Of a stretch of DNA of 64,000 nt, positions 58,766 through 63,737 are shown in pieces. A program made the position numbers and the translations under genes. Under the pieces are notes generated by a model that was given only the letters and a program-made list of their open reading frames with translations, had not been told where the DNA came from and made no database searches. How positions within the stretch are numbered: the stretch's first letter is position 1; every line of letters starts with the position of its first letter. This DNA comes from Actinocorallia herbida (GTDB taxonomy: Bacteria > Actinomycetota > Actinomycetes > Streptosporangiales > Streptosporangiaceae): the NCBI RefSeq assembly GCF_003751225.1, contig NZ_RJKE01000001.1:4774001-4838000 (forward strand), written 5' to 3'.

Positions 58766-59926
58766 TCAGGGGACGCCGATGAGGGTGTCGGTCATCTGCA
58801 GCAGACGGGCGGTGTCGTAGCCGGCCGAGACGAGTCTGCGCTGAATGTGGGTGAGGAGAGGGTGGGCGGTGAAGCAGCGGGTGTCGGGCTCGGGGCGATG
58901 GCGGGCTTCGAAGACCGGCCAGCCCGAGCAGGGGCCCGCGAACTCGCAGCCGGCGCAGTGCAGTGCGCGCGCCTCGCCGTCGCGGTCGAGGGAGCGCCGG
59001 TAGGCGGGGGACGCCAGGATCTCGGGCAGCGACTGGAGGGCGACGCCACCGAGTGCCAGACCGGCATCGTAGCCGTCGACGACGCGGTAGAGGCCGCCGT
59101 CGAGATCGACGACGAAGACGCCGTCGCCGTCCCGCGCCCGGTCGTAGAGGCGGGGCCGGAAACCCGCGAGATGCCTGACGGCGACCGAGAGCAGTTCGGT
59201 GAACGGGTCCACGGGATGCACCGCGCCGTCGTCGAACCAGAGGTCGAAGGCCGCGCACAGCGCCGAGACGAGGGCGGCGCGGTCGAGGTCGAAGGCCGCG
59301 GAATCGCGGGTGGCGGGCCCGTCGAACAGCGGGAGTATCCGCCAGGCGAGGCCCTGCCGCTTGACCCACGCGTACAGCGCGGCCACGTGCGGGGCGGTGT
59401 GCGCGGCCAGCACGGTGATCATCCCGAAGGGGACGCGGGCCTCGGCGAGGCGGGCCATGTTGGCGACCACGCGGTCCTCGGTCTCCCGGCCGCCCGCCGA
59501 GACCCGGACGCCCGGCACCGCGTCGAACGAGACGCCCACGCTGATCCGGTGCCGGCGCAGCAGCGTGAGGTGCGCGTCGGAGAGCCGGAACAGGTTGGTC
59601 TGGAGGCCGAGCCGGTACTCGTCCGAACCTCCGAACCGGTCGGTGAAGCTCGCGCAGAGCCACTCCAGCTCGGCGAGGGGAAGGGACAGGGGTTCGCCGC
59701 CGTGGAGGACGACCGAGGTTCGCGGGGTCCGGCCCGAGTCGCGGACCAGTTCGTGCTGGCTCGCGACGGCGTCGAGCAGCCGGAGGAAGGTACTCCGGGA
59801 CATCCGGGCGCGGTCGGCCAGGTCGTCCCATTCGTAGCAGTAGGCGCAGCGAAGGTTGCAGAACTTGGAGGTCTTCACCACCCAGGTCGTCGACCAGTCG
59901 GCGCGCGCGGCCAAAGACGGGCTCAC
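58766..59926 (-). CDS. radical SAM / SPASM-domain protein
   Basis: Protein of 386 residues. Radical SAM cluster motif C-x3-C-x2-C at Cys23, Cys27, Cys30 (TSKFCNLRCAYCYEW), then VVLHGGEPLSLPLAELEWL and the barrel segments YRLGLQTNLFRLSDAHLTLLRRHRISVGVSFDA. The C-terminal SPASM part has C-x2-C-x5-C (Cys324, Cys327, Cys333: HCAGCEFAGPCSGW) plus Cys351. The usual first SPASM Cys, in a GGLYxC position, is missing (GGLYRVV), so one auxiliary cluster is probably all that binds. Such enzymes usually act on peptides or proteins. GTG 59926 lies 2 bases after the stop of a 108-residue protein, the probable partner or substrate. Confidence 0.88.
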   Translation of the reverse strand: MSPSLAARADWSTTWVVKTSKFCNLRCAYCYEWDDLADRARMSRSTFLRLLDAVASQHELVRDSGRTPRTSVVLHGGEPLSLPLAELEWLCASFTDRFGGSDEYRLGLQTNLFRLSDAHLTLLRRHRISVGVSFDAVPGVRVSAGGRETEDRVVANMARLAEARVPFGMITVLAAHTAPHVAALYAWVKRQGLAWRILPLFDGPATRDSAAFDLDRAALVSALCAAFDLWFDDGAVHPVDPFTELLSVAVRHLAGFRPRLYDRARDGDGVFVVDLDGGLYRVVDGYDAGLALGGVALQSLPEILASPAYRRSLDRDGEARALHCAGCEFAGPCSGWPVFEARHRPEPDTRCFTAHPLLTHIQRRLVSAGYDTARLLQMTDTLIGVP

Positions 59927-59928
59927 GT

Positions 59929-60255
59929 TCAGCCCTGGCGGCCCGGGATCTCGATGTCGACGGGAATTGCCGGATCGAATTCGACGGGCTCGATCACGTC
60001 CTCCCACTCGGTGTGCGGACGGTGGTCGATGTACTGGACCCAGGTGGGCCCGCTCTCCTGAACAAAAGCCGCAATTCCCCCCGGGGAGTTTATTTCAACC
60101 CGCAGGGTGTTGTTCTGGACGTGCAGGATATTGGTGGCGTCGCCCAGCCCGAGCGCATCGCGGATGGCCTCGGGACTGCCGCCGGAGGCGATCGCCTTCT
60201 GGACGGCACTGCGCAGTATTTTGGAGACGACCGAATCAGGATTCTCTTCTGGCAT
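59929..60255 (-). CDS. small acidic protein of unknown family, partner of the radical SAM enzyme
   Basis: Protein of 108 residues, acidic, with no Cys and no signal peptide. The N-terminal 35 residues are helical (VVSKILRSAVQKAIASGGSP). The middle has NNTLRVEINSPGGI, and the C-terminus is rich in acidic and aromatic residues (TWVQYIDHRPHTEWEDVIEP) and ends IEIPGRQG. It was not recognised. It is translationally coupled to the radical SAM gene (TGA then GTG 2 bases on), so it is the likely substrate or docking partner, but it lacks the obvious leader/core layout of RiPP precursors. A TTGCGG-N18-TACTTT promoter ends 6 bases before the ATG, so the mRNA is probably leaderless. Confidence 0.72.
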   Translation of the reverse strand: MPEENPDSVVSKILRSAVQKAIASGGSPEAIRDALGLGDATNILHVQNNTLRVEINSPGGIAAFVQESGPTWVQYIDHRPHTEWEDVIEPVEFDPAIPVDIEIPGRQG

Positions 60256-60261
60256 GGCTCC

Positions 60262-60291
60262 AAAGTACGCTTTGACACATCCGGCCCGCAA
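60262..60291 (-). promoter_or_regulatory. promoter of the small protein/radical SAM operon
   Basis: On the minus strand: TTGCGG (60291-60286), 18 bases, TACTTT (60267-60262), followed after 6 bases by ATG 60255. The start codon coincides with the expected transcription start, so a leaderless mRNA is predicted. Confidence 0.5.
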
Positions 60292-60405
60292 GGAAACAAC
60301 TTTCCGCCGATGCCCATTTCGTCGGGGCATTGACGGTGCGAATCTCCGGATGCATCCTGTGGGACGTATCAGCGTCGCATGTCATTCCCCGCACGGAGAC
60401 CGACG

Positions 60406-61200
60406 ATGACCGAACCCCTGAACCAAGAGCAGTTGCGGGACTCGCTGTTCGAGCGGTTCCTGCGACCGGGACCGCTGGCGATCGCGGACGTCGCCGAGGA
60501 CGTGGTCGAATCCGACGCCGACCTGACGCCTCCCCCCGGCACGATCACCGTGTTCTTCGCCCGCGACCCGCAGGTGCTCGCCGAACTCGGCGCGGCGCTC
60601 GCCCTGAACGACGGCGCCGGGCTCGCCGCGGTGCGCGTCAGGGCCGACGAGGCCCGTGGCGCCCTGCCGGAATCGGACGACGCCGCGCGGTCGAGCGTCC
60701 ACGCGGCCGGCACGGTCTTCGACGTGCGTTATGCGGGCCGGACCATCGCCGGGAACCGCGTCCTTCCCGAAGGGGAGCTCCTCGGGTCCGTCGTCCTGTC
60801 GTGGACCGGAGGGGCGCTGGACGACGACGCCTTCTCCGTCGTCGAGTACGGCACCGAGGAGCTGGCCGAGCAGGAGCTGGCCTACCAGGCGTACCGCCGC
60901 AGGCCGGTGCTGACCGAGCTCGAGCAGGCGATGCTGGAGCGCCTGCCGGCGGAACTGGCCGAGGTGAACCTGGGCACGATCACGGCGTCCGAGACCAAGA
61001 CCATGGAGGAGATCGCGCGCATCGTCGAGCGCGAGGCCAAGCACGCGGTCCAGACCAGGACCTGCGGGCCGGAGAACCTCGACGCGCTCCAGGAGCTCAT
61101 CGAGGGCGAGCTCATCTCGCCCGAGGCGTCGGTCCGCGAACTCGTGCGGGCGCGCCTGGACCTCATGACGCAGAGCAGACTCCGCCGTGCGGGCCGGTGA
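60406..61200 (+). CDS. unrecognised acidic protein, first gene of the HTTM operon
   Basis: Protein of 264 residues with no signal peptide or membrane helix and one Cys (TRTCGPENL, near residue 225). The N-terminal 145 residues are beta-rich with an acidic composition (PPGTITVFFARDPQVLAELGAALAL, TVFDVRYAGRTIAGNRVLPEGELLGSVVLSWTGG). The C-terminal 110 residues are helical (LTELEQAMLERLPAELAEV, METIARIV-type helix) and end with a basic tail. No family recognised. GGAG lies 7 bases before the ATG. It is divergent from the radical SAM pair and overlaps the next gene by 14 bases, so it belongs to the same system. Confidence 0.7.
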   Translation: MTEPLNQEQLRDSLFERFLRPGPLAIADVAEDVVESDADLTPPPGTITVFFARDPQVLAELGAALALNDGAGLAAVRVRADEARGALPESDDAARSSVHAAGTVFDVRYAGRTIAGNRVLPEGELLGSVVLSWTGGALDDDAFSVVEYGTEELAEQELAYQAYRRRPVLTELEQAMLERLPAELAEVNLGTITASETKTMEEIARIVEREAKHAVQTRTCGPENLDALQELIEGELISPEASVRELVRARLDLMTQSRLRRAGR

Positions 61201-61750
61201 CCTGGCCGGCCCGGCCGCCGTCGCCGGAGTGGGCGCCTGGATCCTTCTGACGGTCATCGCCAACCTGCCCCATGGTGAGAGCCTTCTCCTGCGGGTCTTC
61301 GTTCTCCGCCGGCTGCTGGCGCTGATCCCCCGCTGGTCGTTCTTCGCACCGGATCCGGTGCACAGCGACGTCAGCCTGCTTTTCCGTGACCGAATAGGGA
61401 ACGGCGGGCTGTCCGTCTGGCGTGACACGAATCCGGGGTCCCGTCGTCCCTCGGTTCTCCGCCCGTTGTTCAATCCGGACGCCCGTTCTTTCAAGGCCGT
61501 GTCCGACGCGTCGAACGGTCTGATCGCGGCGGCCAGATCAGCCGGGCCCGGCACCCGGCCGCAGGATCTGTCGTTGAACGTCCCGTACCTGCTTCTGCTG
61601 AACCACGTCGCCGGATTCGGTATCGGCCCCGGCGTCGAGGCCCGGCAATTCGCGCTGGTCCGGCACAATCGGCACGAGCAGAGGATGGCCGTGGTCTTCG
61701 TCTCCGGCTTCCACGTCCTCGAGGCCGAGGATTCCAGCGCGGGGAGATGA
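61187..61750 (+). CDS. single-pass membrane protein, SdpA/DUF5819-like
   Basis: Protein of 187 residues: an N-terminal membrane helix (AAVAGVGAWILLTVIANLPHG, about residues 8-28) and a hydrophilic domain. The motif PRWSFFAPDPVHSDVSLLFRD recalls the W-x-F-F-A/T-P-x-P element found in SdpA-type and DUF5819 proteins, which accompany HTTM-domain partners. Similarity is limited to this motif, so the family call is tentative. It overlaps the preceding gene by 14 bases and the next by 4 (ATGA), giving a tightly coupled trio. Confidence 0.6.
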   Translation: MRAGDLAGPAAVAGVGAWILLTVIANLPHGESLLLRVFVLRRLLALIPRWSFFAPDPVHSDVSLLFRDRIGNGGLSVWRDTNPGSRRPSVLRPLFNPDARSFKAVSDASNGLIAAARSAGPGTRPQDLSLNVPYLLLLNHVAGFGIGPGVEARQFALVRHNRHEQRMAVVFVSGFHVLEAEDSSAGR

Positions 61751-62541
61751 CCTTTCAGTTCGCGCTCTGCGCCTCCGCGGTCCTCGTGGGCTCGGCCGGC
61801 CTGATCCGCGCGCTCGAGGACTGGTGGAACCGCGCGGCCTTCGCCGACCACGGGATCATGTCGGCGGCCATCGTCGGCCTCCAGTGGGCCGGGCCGGGCG
61901 GTGCGCCGATGCGCGTCGCGGGGTCGTACGCCCTGGTCCGCCTCTGCATTCTCCTGCGTGTCGCGGCGGCGCTCGGGCTCGCCGCCGCACCCGTCCTGCC
62001 GACCGGCGCCGTGGCCGTGCTCCTCGCCGCCAACGCCTGCCTGCTCGCCTTCTTCCTGCTGCGCTGCGGCTACGGCGCCGACGGCGCCGATCAGATGCTC
62101 ATCATCGTCTCCGTGGGCACGGCCCTGGCCGCGGGCCCGGCAGGCGCGGTCCGCGGCGCGGGGCAGTGGCTGATCACCGGGCAGCTCGTCCTCTCCTTCT
62201 TCATCGCCGGCGCCGCCAAACTGGCGGGAGCGGACTGGAGGTCGGGGCGGGCCCTTCGCGGCATCCTGACGACCGACCGCTACGGCACCCCGGCGCTCGG
62301 CCGCCTCGTGAGCCGCCATGGTGTCGCGACCCTCGCGCTGGGGTGGGGCGTCATGCTGATGGAGGTCTCCTTCCCCGTCACCCTCCTCGGGATCCGCGAG
62401 TTGACGCTGGCCTTCCTCGTCGCGGGCCTGGTGTTCCACTTCGGTGTCGCGGCGGCGATGGGCCTCAACAACTTCTTCCTCACCTTCGCCGCCGCCTACC
62501 CGGTCGCCGCCTACACCCTGGTCATGCCGCCCCCGCGTTGA
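61747..62541 (+). CDS. HTTM-domain (SdpB/gamma-carboxylase-like) membrane protein
   Basis: Protein of 264 residues with about seven hydrophobic helices. HTTM family features: DWWNRAAFADHGIM near the N-terminus, CGYGADGADQMLIIVS, FFIAGAAKLAGADWRSGRALRGILTTDRYG and a late VFHFGVAAAMGLNNFFLTF. HTTM is the membrane core shared by vitamin-K-dependent gamma-carboxylase homologues and SdpB, the latter needed for maturing the SDP killing factor with SdpA. This protein is shorter than gamma-carboxylase and lacks its C-terminal domain. Coupled by ATGA to the upstream SdpA-like gene. Confidence 0.72.
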   Translation: MTFQFALCASAVLVGSAGLIRALEDWWNRAAFADHGIMSAAIVGLQWAGPGGAPMRVAGSYALVRLCILLRVAAALGLAAAPVLPTGAVAVLLAANACLLAFFLLRCGYGADGADQMLIIVSVGTALAAGPAGAVRGAGQWLITGQLVLSFFIAGAAKLAGADWRSGRALRGILTTDRYGTPALGRLVSRHGVATLALGWGVMLMEVSFPVTLLGIRELTLAFLVAGLVFHFGVAAAMGLNNFFLTFAAAYPVAAYTLVMPPPR

Positions 62542-62574
62542 TCGGACCGGGAGCCGGGCACGGGCGGGCGCGCC

Positions 62575-63699
62575 TCACCCGGCCGCGCCGTAGCGGGCGC
62601 GGGCGGAGGGGTGGAGGTTAGTGCGGGTGAGGTCGCCGTCATAGTGGGCGAGGACCCGCTCGTCCATGACGTGCCGCCACAGCGGGGGCAGGTAGGCCAG
62701 GACGATCATCGTGGCGTAGCCGGACGGGAGCTCGGGCGCCTCGTCGAAGTGGCGCAGGGCCTGGTAGCGGCGGGTGGGGTTGGCGTGGTGGTCGCTGTGC
62801 CGCTGGAGGTGGTAGAGCAGCAGGTTGGAGGCGACGTTGTTGCTGTTCCACGAGTGGCGCGGAGCGCAGCGCTCGTACCGGCCGGACGCGGTGCGCTGCC
62901 GCAGCAGCCCGTAGTGCTCCAGGTAGTTGACGACTTCGAGCAGCGAGAATCCGAACACCGCCTGGATCAGCAGGTAGGGCAGGATCTCCGGGCCGAACCC
63001 GGCGAGCAGCGCGCCGAACAGCGCGAACGTCAGCGCCCAGGCGTTCAGCACCTCGTTGGACGCCCGCCACGGGCCCTTGCCCGTGCGGGCGAGGCGGGCC
63101 TTCTCCAGATGCCAGCCGGACCTCAGGGAGCCCCACACGCTGCGCGGGAAGAAGTGCCAGAAGGTCTCGCCGAGCCGCGCGCTGGCCGGGTCCTCGGGGG
63201 TCGCGACGCGGCGGTGGTGGCCGCGGTTGTGCTCGATGAAGAAGTGCCCGTACGCGGTCTGGGCGAGCGCGACCTTCGCCAGCCGGCGCTCGTGCGCCTC
63301 CGTCTTGTGGCCGAGTTCGTGCGCCGTGTTGATGCCGATGCCGCCCACCGCGCCGAGGGTGAGGGCCAGGCCCAGCTTGTCGGCCACCGACAGGCCGCCG
63401 TGCGCCCACAGCCAGCACCCCGCGATCAGCCCGGCGTACTGGAGCGGCAGGTACAGGTAGGTGCACCAGCGGTAGTACCGCTGCTCCTCCAGCGCGGCGA
63501 TGGCGCTGTCCGGCGGGTTGGCGGCGTCCTTGCCGATGAGCTGGTCGAGCACCGGGAACAGGCCGAACAGGAAGACCGGCCCGGACCACCAGAAGAAGCC
63601 GGACCCGGTCGCCTCGGCGAGCCCCCAGGCGAGGAACGGGAACGACGGGACGAACAGCCCGAGCAGCCACAGGTACTTCTTCGGATCCACCCAGCCCAT
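62575..63699 (-). CDS. alkB: alkane 1-monooxygenase (AlkB-like)
   Basis: Integral-membrane di-iron hydroxylase of 374 residues. Six helices; the histidine boxes are NTAHELGHKTEAHERR (HELGH), FFIEHNRGHHRRVATPEDP (HNRGHH) and LLYHLQRHSDHHANPTRRYQ (HSDHH), plus the AlkB-specific NYLEHYGLLRQ. It inserts oxygen at the terminal carbon of n-alkanes and needs rubredoxin and its reductase; no rubredoxin is fused or adjacent within the window. ATG 63699 has GGAGG 4 bases upstream; ATG 63717 is an alternative. Divergent from a TetR gene with an operator in the promoter. Confidence 0.94.
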   Translation of the reverse strand: MGWVDPKKYLWLLGLFVPSFPFLAWGLAEATGSGFFWWSGPVFLFGLFPVLDQLIGKDAANPPDSAIAALEEQRYYRWCTYLYLPLQYAGLIAGCWLWAHGGLSVADKLGLALTLGAVGGIGINTAHELGHKTEAHERRLAKVALAQTAYGHFFIEHNRGHHRRVATPEDPASARLGETFWHFFPRSVWGSLRSGWHLEKARLARTGKGPWRASNEVLNAWALTFALFGALLAGFGPEILPYLLIQAVFGFSLLEVVNYLEHYGLLRQRTASGRYERCAPRHSWNSNNVASNLLLYHLQRHSDHHANPTRRYQALRHFDEAPELPSGYATMIVLAYLPPLWRHVMDERVLAHYDGDLTRTNLHPSARARYGAAG

Positions 63700-63737
63700 C
63701 GGACCTCCACTGGACATTTTCTAATAGATCTGTCCAG

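What the first reader, a model, noticed from the sequence alone, without database searches (positions are those of the whole stretch)
58766..62541. Radical SAM/SPASM enzyme with four uncommon partners including an HTTM protein: candidate undescribed modification system
Two divergent, tightly coupled operons share one promoter region: a 108-residue acidic protein plus radical SAM/SPASM enzyme on the minus strand, and an unrecognised 264-residue protein, an SdpA/DUF5819-like membrane protein and an HTTM protein on the plus strand. In SDP systems SdpA and SdpB (HTTM) mature a secreted killing peptide; combining that module with a radical SAM enzyme is not an arrangement I know. No classical Cys-rich core peptide is visible, so the target may be the 108- or 264-residue protein.
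Basis: partly seen in the sequence, partly recalled or inferred. Interest (0 to 1): 0.85.

Follow-up and report, generated by a model that had tools for sequence, protein, structure and literature searches.

The report
Two back-to-back peptide-toxin-like gene sets
Two neighbouring gene sets, each apparently a small precursor protein plus the enzymes that turn it into a modified peptide, sit back to back here; one of them belongs to a widely scattered, apparently unnamed kind of peptide-making system.

Summary

Plus strand: the 264-aa protein ('X') belongs to a family whose 14 members tagged at E<=1e-4 in 80 named loci all lie directly before an SdpA/LinL-like gene and an SdpB/HTTM gene. These partners are homologues of the LinL and HTTM proteins of a cypemycin-type linaridin cluster. 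X and short ORFs in the same place share a C-terminal signature: 55 of 79 loci against 12 of 1290 control genes (pattern written after looking). X is modelled as folded domain, disordered stretch, C-terminal helix. I read X as the precursor, its end guiding the membrane maturase.

Minus strand: the 108-aa protein has five aromatic/His residues spaced exactly three apart (WVQ-YID-HRP-HTE-WED; shuffle P 4.5e-5, post hoc), beside a radical SAM/SPASM enzyme nearest to crosslinking enzymes: probably a multi-cyclophane precursor.

Radical SAM genes are not a conserved partner of the module. Joint function is open. The window's X core is not hydrophobic, which weakens the SDP analogy.

The parts
58766..59926 (-). 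radical SAM/SPASM-type peptide maturase, 386 aa from GTG; CX3CX2C (CNLRCAYC) and a C-x2-C-x5-C-x17-C end read by eye from the sequence
   Evidence: Pfam Radical_SAM 9.7e-14, SPASM sub-threshold; best NCBIfam models DynA 97 bits, AmcB, anaerobic sulfatase maturase, YhhB, FxsB, all far below their cut-offs; best solved relative ChlB radical SAM domain 1.8e-11
59929..60255 (-). 108-aa candidate multi-cyclophane precursor; candidate core residues 72-86, WVQ YID HRP HTE WED
   Evidence: aromatic/His run of 5 at period three, shuffle P 4.5e-5, post hoc; 2-bp gap to the rSAM gene
60256..60405 (.). 150-bp divergent intergenic region, GC 0.593 against 0.721 for the window
   Evidence: no sigma-70-like site found
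60406..61200 (+). X, 264-aa candidate precursor protein: ordered N-terminal domain about residues 6-188, low-confidence 192-237, C-terminal helix 239-263 carrying the signature SVRELVRAR
   Evidence: homologues; AlphaFold2 model; signature
61187..61750 (+). SdpA/LinL-like protein, 187 aa, modelled as one N-terminal helix (3-25) plus a small alpha/beta domain
   Evidence: alignments with linaridin-cluster LinL proteins and others; model mean pLDDT 82.7
61747..62541 (+). SdpB/HTTM membrane protein, 264 aa; K158, W164 and H231 invariant in 70 of 70 aligned sequences
   Evidence: TIGR04033 SdpB 30.9 bits, below cut-off; homologues; conservation in the window protein plus the 69 of 81 called HTTM genes that are 250-300 aa

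Best explanation
Two adjacent ribosomal-peptide systems, each with its own precursor and maturase. (1) X is a precursor protein: a folded N-terminal domain, a variable core and a conserved C-terminal helix. The LinL/SdpA-like and HTTM/SdpB-like membrane proteins recognise its C-terminal helix (inferred), modify and/or cut the core at the membrane and release a peptide, probably aimed at other bacteria (inferred from SDP and linaridins). (2) The 108-aa protein is the substrate of the radical SAM/SPASM enzyme, which links aromatic or His residues of the tandem three-residue repeat to the residue two further on, giving a chain of cyclophanes (inferred). Shown: gene order, homology, the shared signature, the period-three run and a model of X. 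Not shown: any chemistry, product, target, regulation or joint function.
For: 14 of 14 X genes tagged at E<=1e-4 (and 2 weaker ones) lie directly before LinL (the profile had 3 seeds, one of them this Streptomyces protein). An iterated search reaches 16 of 80 named loci (17 with the short L148 ORF), plus the Rhodococcus plasmid locus L045. C-terminal signature upstream of the module in 55 of 79 loci, against 12 of 1290 other genes and 461 of 16000 random windows; loci of one genus are not independent, and grouped by genus or MAG label it is 32 of 47 groups. A matrix trained on X alone still puts 11 of 63 non-X loci above the 99th percentile of 1290 controls, against 139 of 12600 random windows. 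LinL stands directly before HTTM in 59 of the 73 loci where both were called. Q4 and Q5 match the LinL and HTTM genes of L070 (1.3e-12, 1.2e-16), whose precursor passes the cypemycin-family model (98.9 vs 35 bits). 42 of 58 signature ORFs hold a hydrophobic 19-residue stretch (mean Kyte-Doolittle >=1.0), as SDP and YIT precursors have a hydrophobic C-terminal domain (PMC6818787, passages). rSAM/108; three-residue crosslinks between i and i+2, among them Tyr-x-Asp and Trp-x-Asp, from passages of PMC11002830.
Against: The window X core is not hydrophobic (best 19-residue mean 0.49), unlike most others. 24 of 79 loci show no signature ORF, among them linaridin types and 4 of the 14 X genes. The signature pattern and the run-of-five test were framed after seeing the sequences; a run of 5 or more also occurs in 11 other proteins of 1641 examined, and the two YhhA precursors taken as controls have runs of only 2. 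The one held-out locus found misses the pattern by one position. A leader-like motif was present in only 28 of 58 signature ORFs. No curated model over its cut-off names the LinL/HTTM pair as SDP or linaridin, and no SdpC was found in this genome. Neither X nor LinL has a structural match in the PDB at E<=0.001. No exporter dedicated to peptides or immunity gene was recognised among the neighbours, though none was specifically searched for.
Confidence: 0.6

Rival explanations
1. One hybrid system: the radical SAM enzyme modifies X (or the 108-aa protein is a carrier or recognition protein) and LinL/HTTM finish the same peptide.
For: Shared 150-bp divergent region. All five genes lie together between a permease and an alkB-like gene, and no hit to the 108-aa, X or rSAM proteins turned up outside the own genome in the relatives searched. 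L035 shows an HTTM/LinL pair beside radical SAM genes and aroma-sacti-domain precursors.
Against: Two scans of 100 fetched loci (4148 ORFs of 120 aa or more in the second) found radical SAM-like ORFs only in L035, L069 and L098; within four genes of the HTTM only L098 of the named loci carries the CX3CX2C tag. The 108-aa protein offers its own well-placed candidate substrate.
Confidence: 0.22
2. X is not a precursor but a soluble third subunit or binding partner of the LinL/HTTM pair; the peptide is elsewhere.
For: X has a well-ordered domain of about 180 residues, and the window's X lacks a hydrophobic core.
Against: In many loci the same place is held by ORFs of about 70-170 aa with the same ending and a hydrophobic middle; the X stretch between domain and helix is variable in the alignment and the least ordered part of the model.
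Confidence: 0.2
3. The 108-aa protein is an unrelated small protein and the rSAM enzyme is a solitary gene.
For: No relative of the 108-aa protein found and no close relative of the rSAM enzyme.
Against: The 2-bp spacing (coupling inferred), the CX3CX2C motif read in the sequence, and the period-three run.
Confidence: 0.15

Closest known systems
Linaridins (cypemycin type)
   Same: HTTM and LinL-type proteins, homologous in sequence to those of L070, whose precursor passes the cypemycin-family model; corynaridin likewise has an HTTM protein, a hydrolase and LinL (PMC9927463, passages)
   Different: no PxxxTP motif in X; no hydrolase, methyltransferase or ABC transporter among the eight neighbouring proteins scanned
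SDP / YIT peptide toxins (sdpABC, yitPOM) of Bacillus subtilis
   Same: three-gene logic of precursor plus SdpA and SdpB; precursor conserved in its N-terminal part and variable in its C-terminal hydrophobic domain (PMC6818787, passages); weak sdpABC homologues are already reported in Brevibacterium (PMC5719810, passages)
   Different: SdpB only 30.9 of 178.4 bits; no SdpC found in the genome; window X core not hydrophobic; X has no secretion signal that I can see, while SdpC has one
Three-residue cyclophane RiPPs (triceptides) and other crosslinking radical SAM enzymes (DynA, AmcB, YhhB, FxsB, ChlB)
   Same: SPASM-type radical SAM enzyme beside a protein with aromatic-x-x repeats
   Different: every named model far below cut-off; 108-aa precursor longer than the two YhhA seen (60 and 84 aa), which have short runs
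aroma-sacti cluster as in L035
   Same: HTTM/LinL pair beside radical SAM genes, in a genome of the same family
   Different: other enzyme types (B12-binding, YydG-like) and other precursors

Membership tests
Linaridins | LinL homologue | tested here: met
   Q4 against the L070 LinL, E 1.3e-12; alignments
Linaridins | HTTM protein with fused or separate alpha/beta hydrolase | tested here: not met
   HTTM present, but no hydrolase domain among the eight proteins scanned
Linaridins | precursor with PxxxTP motif (PMC9927463, passages) | tested here: not met
   read by eye in the X translation: its only TP (DADLTPPPG) has D, not P, at the first position
SDP (sdpABC) | SdpB over model cut-off | tested here: not met
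   30.9 of 178.4 bits
SDP (sdpABC) | SdpC homologue | tested here: not met
   none in the genome at E<=1e-5; Bacillus subtilis control rings
SDP (sdpABC) | secreted hydrophobic peptide cut from the precursor | not testable with these tools
   window X hydropathy 0.49 speaks against
Three-residue cyclophane RiPPs | radical SAM enzyme with CX3CX2C and SPASM cysteines | tested here: inconclusive
   Radical_SAM over cut-off, SPASM below; cysteines read by eye from the sequence
Three-residue cyclophane RiPPs | aromatic-x-x motifs in a neighbouring precursor | tested here: met
   WVQ YID HRP HTE WED, shuffle P 4.5e-5, post hoc; but 11 of 1641 other proteins also have a run of 5 or more
Three-residue cyclophane RiPPs | C-C crosslink between residues i and i+2 | not testable with these tools
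   needs co-expression and mass spectrometry

The most novel reading that the evidence does not exclude
X-LinL-HTTM and its short-precursor cousins form one broad class of ribosomal peptide systems, spread over about ten phyla (phylum names recalled from record titles) including Chlamydiota and a haloarchaeon, in which a C-terminal 'follower' helix rather than a leader directs an SdpAB/LinL-HTTM membrane maturase. SDP and linaridins are then two branches of it, and here it has been paired with a new multi-cyclophane system.
Probability: 0.35. Interest if true: 0.8.

Novelty: new variant of a known kind. Interest (0 to 1): 0.6.

Why it matters
SdpA/SdpB are needed for SDP, and LinL/HTTM-type proteins are thought to act in linaridin maturation, yet their chemistry is unsettled in the passages I saw. 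A shared precursor signature found next to the pair in many genera gives a substrate handle, lets the two known systems be compared on one footing, and points to many unexplored peptides. The 108-aa protein is a small test substrate for a possible five-repeat cyclophane enzyme. On novelty: in the listings of seven searches and the passages opened from them I saw no description of this precursor family or signature; the library lacks most subscription journals, and two key papers were not held.

Tried and rejected
Rejected: a Cys-rich core (none seen). A five-gene conserved system: the trio recurs without a radical SAM gene. A defence system: PADLOC gave only viperin-like matches (31.4 and 18.8 bits) to the radical SAM protein and none to the other four. 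The link of HTTM to gamma-glutamyl carboxylase: two profile searches of solved structures found nothing, so an active-site lysine parallel stays a recalled lead. Structure searches with X and LinL gave no match at E<=0.001. The first signature matrix was narrow (only 2 of 63 non-X loci beat the best control). The first radical SAM profile (4 seeds) missed the genes of L035; a second scan with 8 seeds added only those. Held-out test, thin: 247 genomes of the phylum of L073 gave one new locus, L163/L164, whose upstream ORF ends SFSLKELENLRDKLKGLK and misses the pattern by one position. Empty-site test: of four relatives fetched, alkB is followed by two rubredoxin-like ORFs in L185, L187 and L188 but not in L186; the window lacks them too, so a breakpoint near 62542-62574 is possible but not shown, and it does not tell whether both operons came together (Pfam checked for L185 only). 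One locus (L130) had no centre called and was dropped, giving 79 of 80; 12 of 81 HTTM genes outside 250-300 aa were left out of the conservation count. Of 17 plasmid records with an HTTM match I opened 8.
Full report
Observation. The five ORFs are real and placed as stated. The minus-strand pair is separated by 2 bp. The plus-strand trio overlaps by 14 and 4 bp, and the divergent gap is 150 bp with lower GC, 0.593 against 0.721 for the window. The window lies at 4774001-4838000 of a 9.8 Mb single-contig genome.

Plus-strand trio. A single-protein search with the HTTM protein found strong relatives (E<1e-20) in 6 of 199 other genomes of the order. Five of these loci look like linaridin clusters, with PVLATP- or PVTATP-type small ORFs and neighbours that I judged by eye to resemble the methyltransferase, ABC transporter and oxidoreductase genes annotated in Streptomyces californicus. 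The sixth is L035: one radical SAM gene over Pfam's cut-off (B12-binding), one just below it (YydG-like), and small ORFs of which the two tested pass the aroma-sacti domain model. L070 (fetched after the phylum search) holds a precursor that passes the cypemycin-family model, and its LinL and HTTM genes match Q4 and Q5. Of 17 plasmid records with a match I opened 8: Rhodococcus, two lanthipeptide-bearing Streptomyces, S. californicus, Kocuria, Embleya, Paroceanicella, and a Haloplanus locus near YcaO-type genes. The LinL/HTTM pair is therefore a module found beside several kinds of peptide-modifying genes.

The wide scan. A first scan of genome contigs with the radical SAM protein found no relative (38 stretches matched a pattern, none confirmed). 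A scan with the 4-sequence HTTM alignment A3 found 145 relatives, of which the best 80 were kept. By record titles (phylum assignment recalled) they span Actinomycetota, Bacteroidota, Chlamydiota, Cyanobacteria, Pseudomonadota, Myxococcota, Verrucomicrobiota, Planctomycetota, Acidobacteriota, Chloroflexota and a Haloferax; several are MAGs, where mis-binning is possible. LinL is immediately upstream of HTTM in 59 loci, in another arrangement in 14, not called in 6, and no centre was called in 1.

That protein in turn reaches the Rhodococcus plasmid protein at 2e-5; the direct comparison of the window X with the Rhodococcus protein gave only 0.006. In the 80 loci, all 14 genes tagged at E<=1e-4, and two weaker ones, lie directly before LinL; iteration reaches 16 loci, 17 counting the short ORF of L148. 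The variable part lies between a conserved domain and a conserved end. The AlphaFold2 model agrees: ordered to about residue 188, low confidence 192-237, helix 239-263 at moderate confidence (mean pLDDT 71.4, 13 sequences). It has no PDB match at E<=0.001.

The signature. Short ORFs in the same place end alike, for instance GLSLDKLIELRKKFN in Pedobacter and GSAQDLLNFRAGSIG in Saccharomonospora; X of the window ends EASVRELVRARLDLM before a short tail. With a pattern written after seeing these, 55 of 79 loci have such an ORF ending within 500 bp upstream, against 12 of 1290 control genes and 461 of 16000 random windows. The loci are not independent (ten Pedobacter, six Mucilaginibacter and so on); grouped by genus or MAG label it is 32 of 47 groups, and 10 of the 14 X genes. 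A matrix trained on X alone gives 11 of 63 non-X loci above the 99th control percentile, against 139 of 12600 random windows. 42 of 58 such ORFs hold a hydrophobic stretch; the window X does not. A leader-like motif was found in only 28 of 58. Two precursors (L151 with PVLATP; L106 with PVLTP, similar but not the PxxxTP motif) carry both a linaridin-like stretch and this ending, which hints at a continuum.

Known background. SdpA and SdpB are required to process SdpC, and the toxin comes from its C-terminal hydrophobic domain (PMC6818787, passages). An HTTM protein, a hydrolase and LinL are suspected to dehydrate linaridins, by an unclear mechanism (PMC9927463, passages; PMC7794033, passages, names LinH or LinL). 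grmL has been suggested as a peptide epimerase (PMC10373908, passages). Weak sdpABC homologues and linaridin clusters in Brevibacterium are on record (PMC5719810, passages). Invariant K158, W164 and H231 in 70 of 70 HTTM proteins mark candidate active residues.

Minus-strand pair. The best five NCBIfam models for the radical SAM protein are DynA (97 of a 450-bit cut-off), AmcB, anaerobic sulfatase maturase, YhhB and FxsB. Its best solved relative is the ChlB radical SAM domain, E 1.8e-11 over residues 13-366; two sulfatase maturases follow. ChlB is a multiple-cyclophane synthase by the title of a reference seen. It has no relative at E<=1e-25 in 148 other relatives, nor at E<=1e-18 in 395 other genomes of the phylum. 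In plasmids 159 records match at E<=1e-5, all below 60% identity. In the 108-aa protein five of its eight aromatic/His residues stand at spacing three, W72 Y75 H78 H81 W84; no other called gene of the window has such a run, but 11 of 1641 proteins in window and loci do. Tyr-x-Asp and Trp-x-Asp are known crosslink motifs (PMC11002830, passages).

Together or apart. Two scans of 100 fetched loci found radical SAM-like ORFs only in L035, L069 and L098. I therefore prefer two systems side by side, and keep the hybrid as a live rival.

Novelty. The parts are of known kinds. The precursor family X, the shared C-terminal signature and the breadth are, as far as the searches named above show, undescribed.

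Noticed in passing
window 62542-62574: The alkB-like gene (62575-63717, -) lacks the two rubredoxin-like ORFs that follow it in three of four relatives fetched (L185, L187, L188, not L186; Pfam checked for L185 only): a possible breakpoint next to the HTTM gene.
   Followed up: partly
L035:5615-13674: HTTM/LinL pair beside a B12-binding radical SAM gene, a YydG-like one and a third ORF similar to it, a haem-oxygenase-like gene, an MFS transporter and four small ORFs, two of which were tested and pass the aroma-sacti domain model.
   Followed up: partly
L066:8484-12477: Nitriliruptoraceae MAG (L109 by title): LinL/HTTM flanked by three ORFs with one shared N-terminus.
   Followed up: no
L092 and L094: X of a Kineococcus and of a Verrucomicrobiales MAG look near-identical in parts and are each found in two frames; horizontal transfer, mis-binning or sequencing error.
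   Followed up: no
L102 and L123: Saccharomonospora and Prauserella carry two tandem HTTM-LinL sets with small precursor-like ORFs before each.
   Followed up: no
L073:10750-11169: A DCC1-like thiol-disulfide oxidoreductase follows HTTM in L073; similar ORFs follow it in other Pedobacter and Bacteroidetes loci (by eye).
   Followed up: partly
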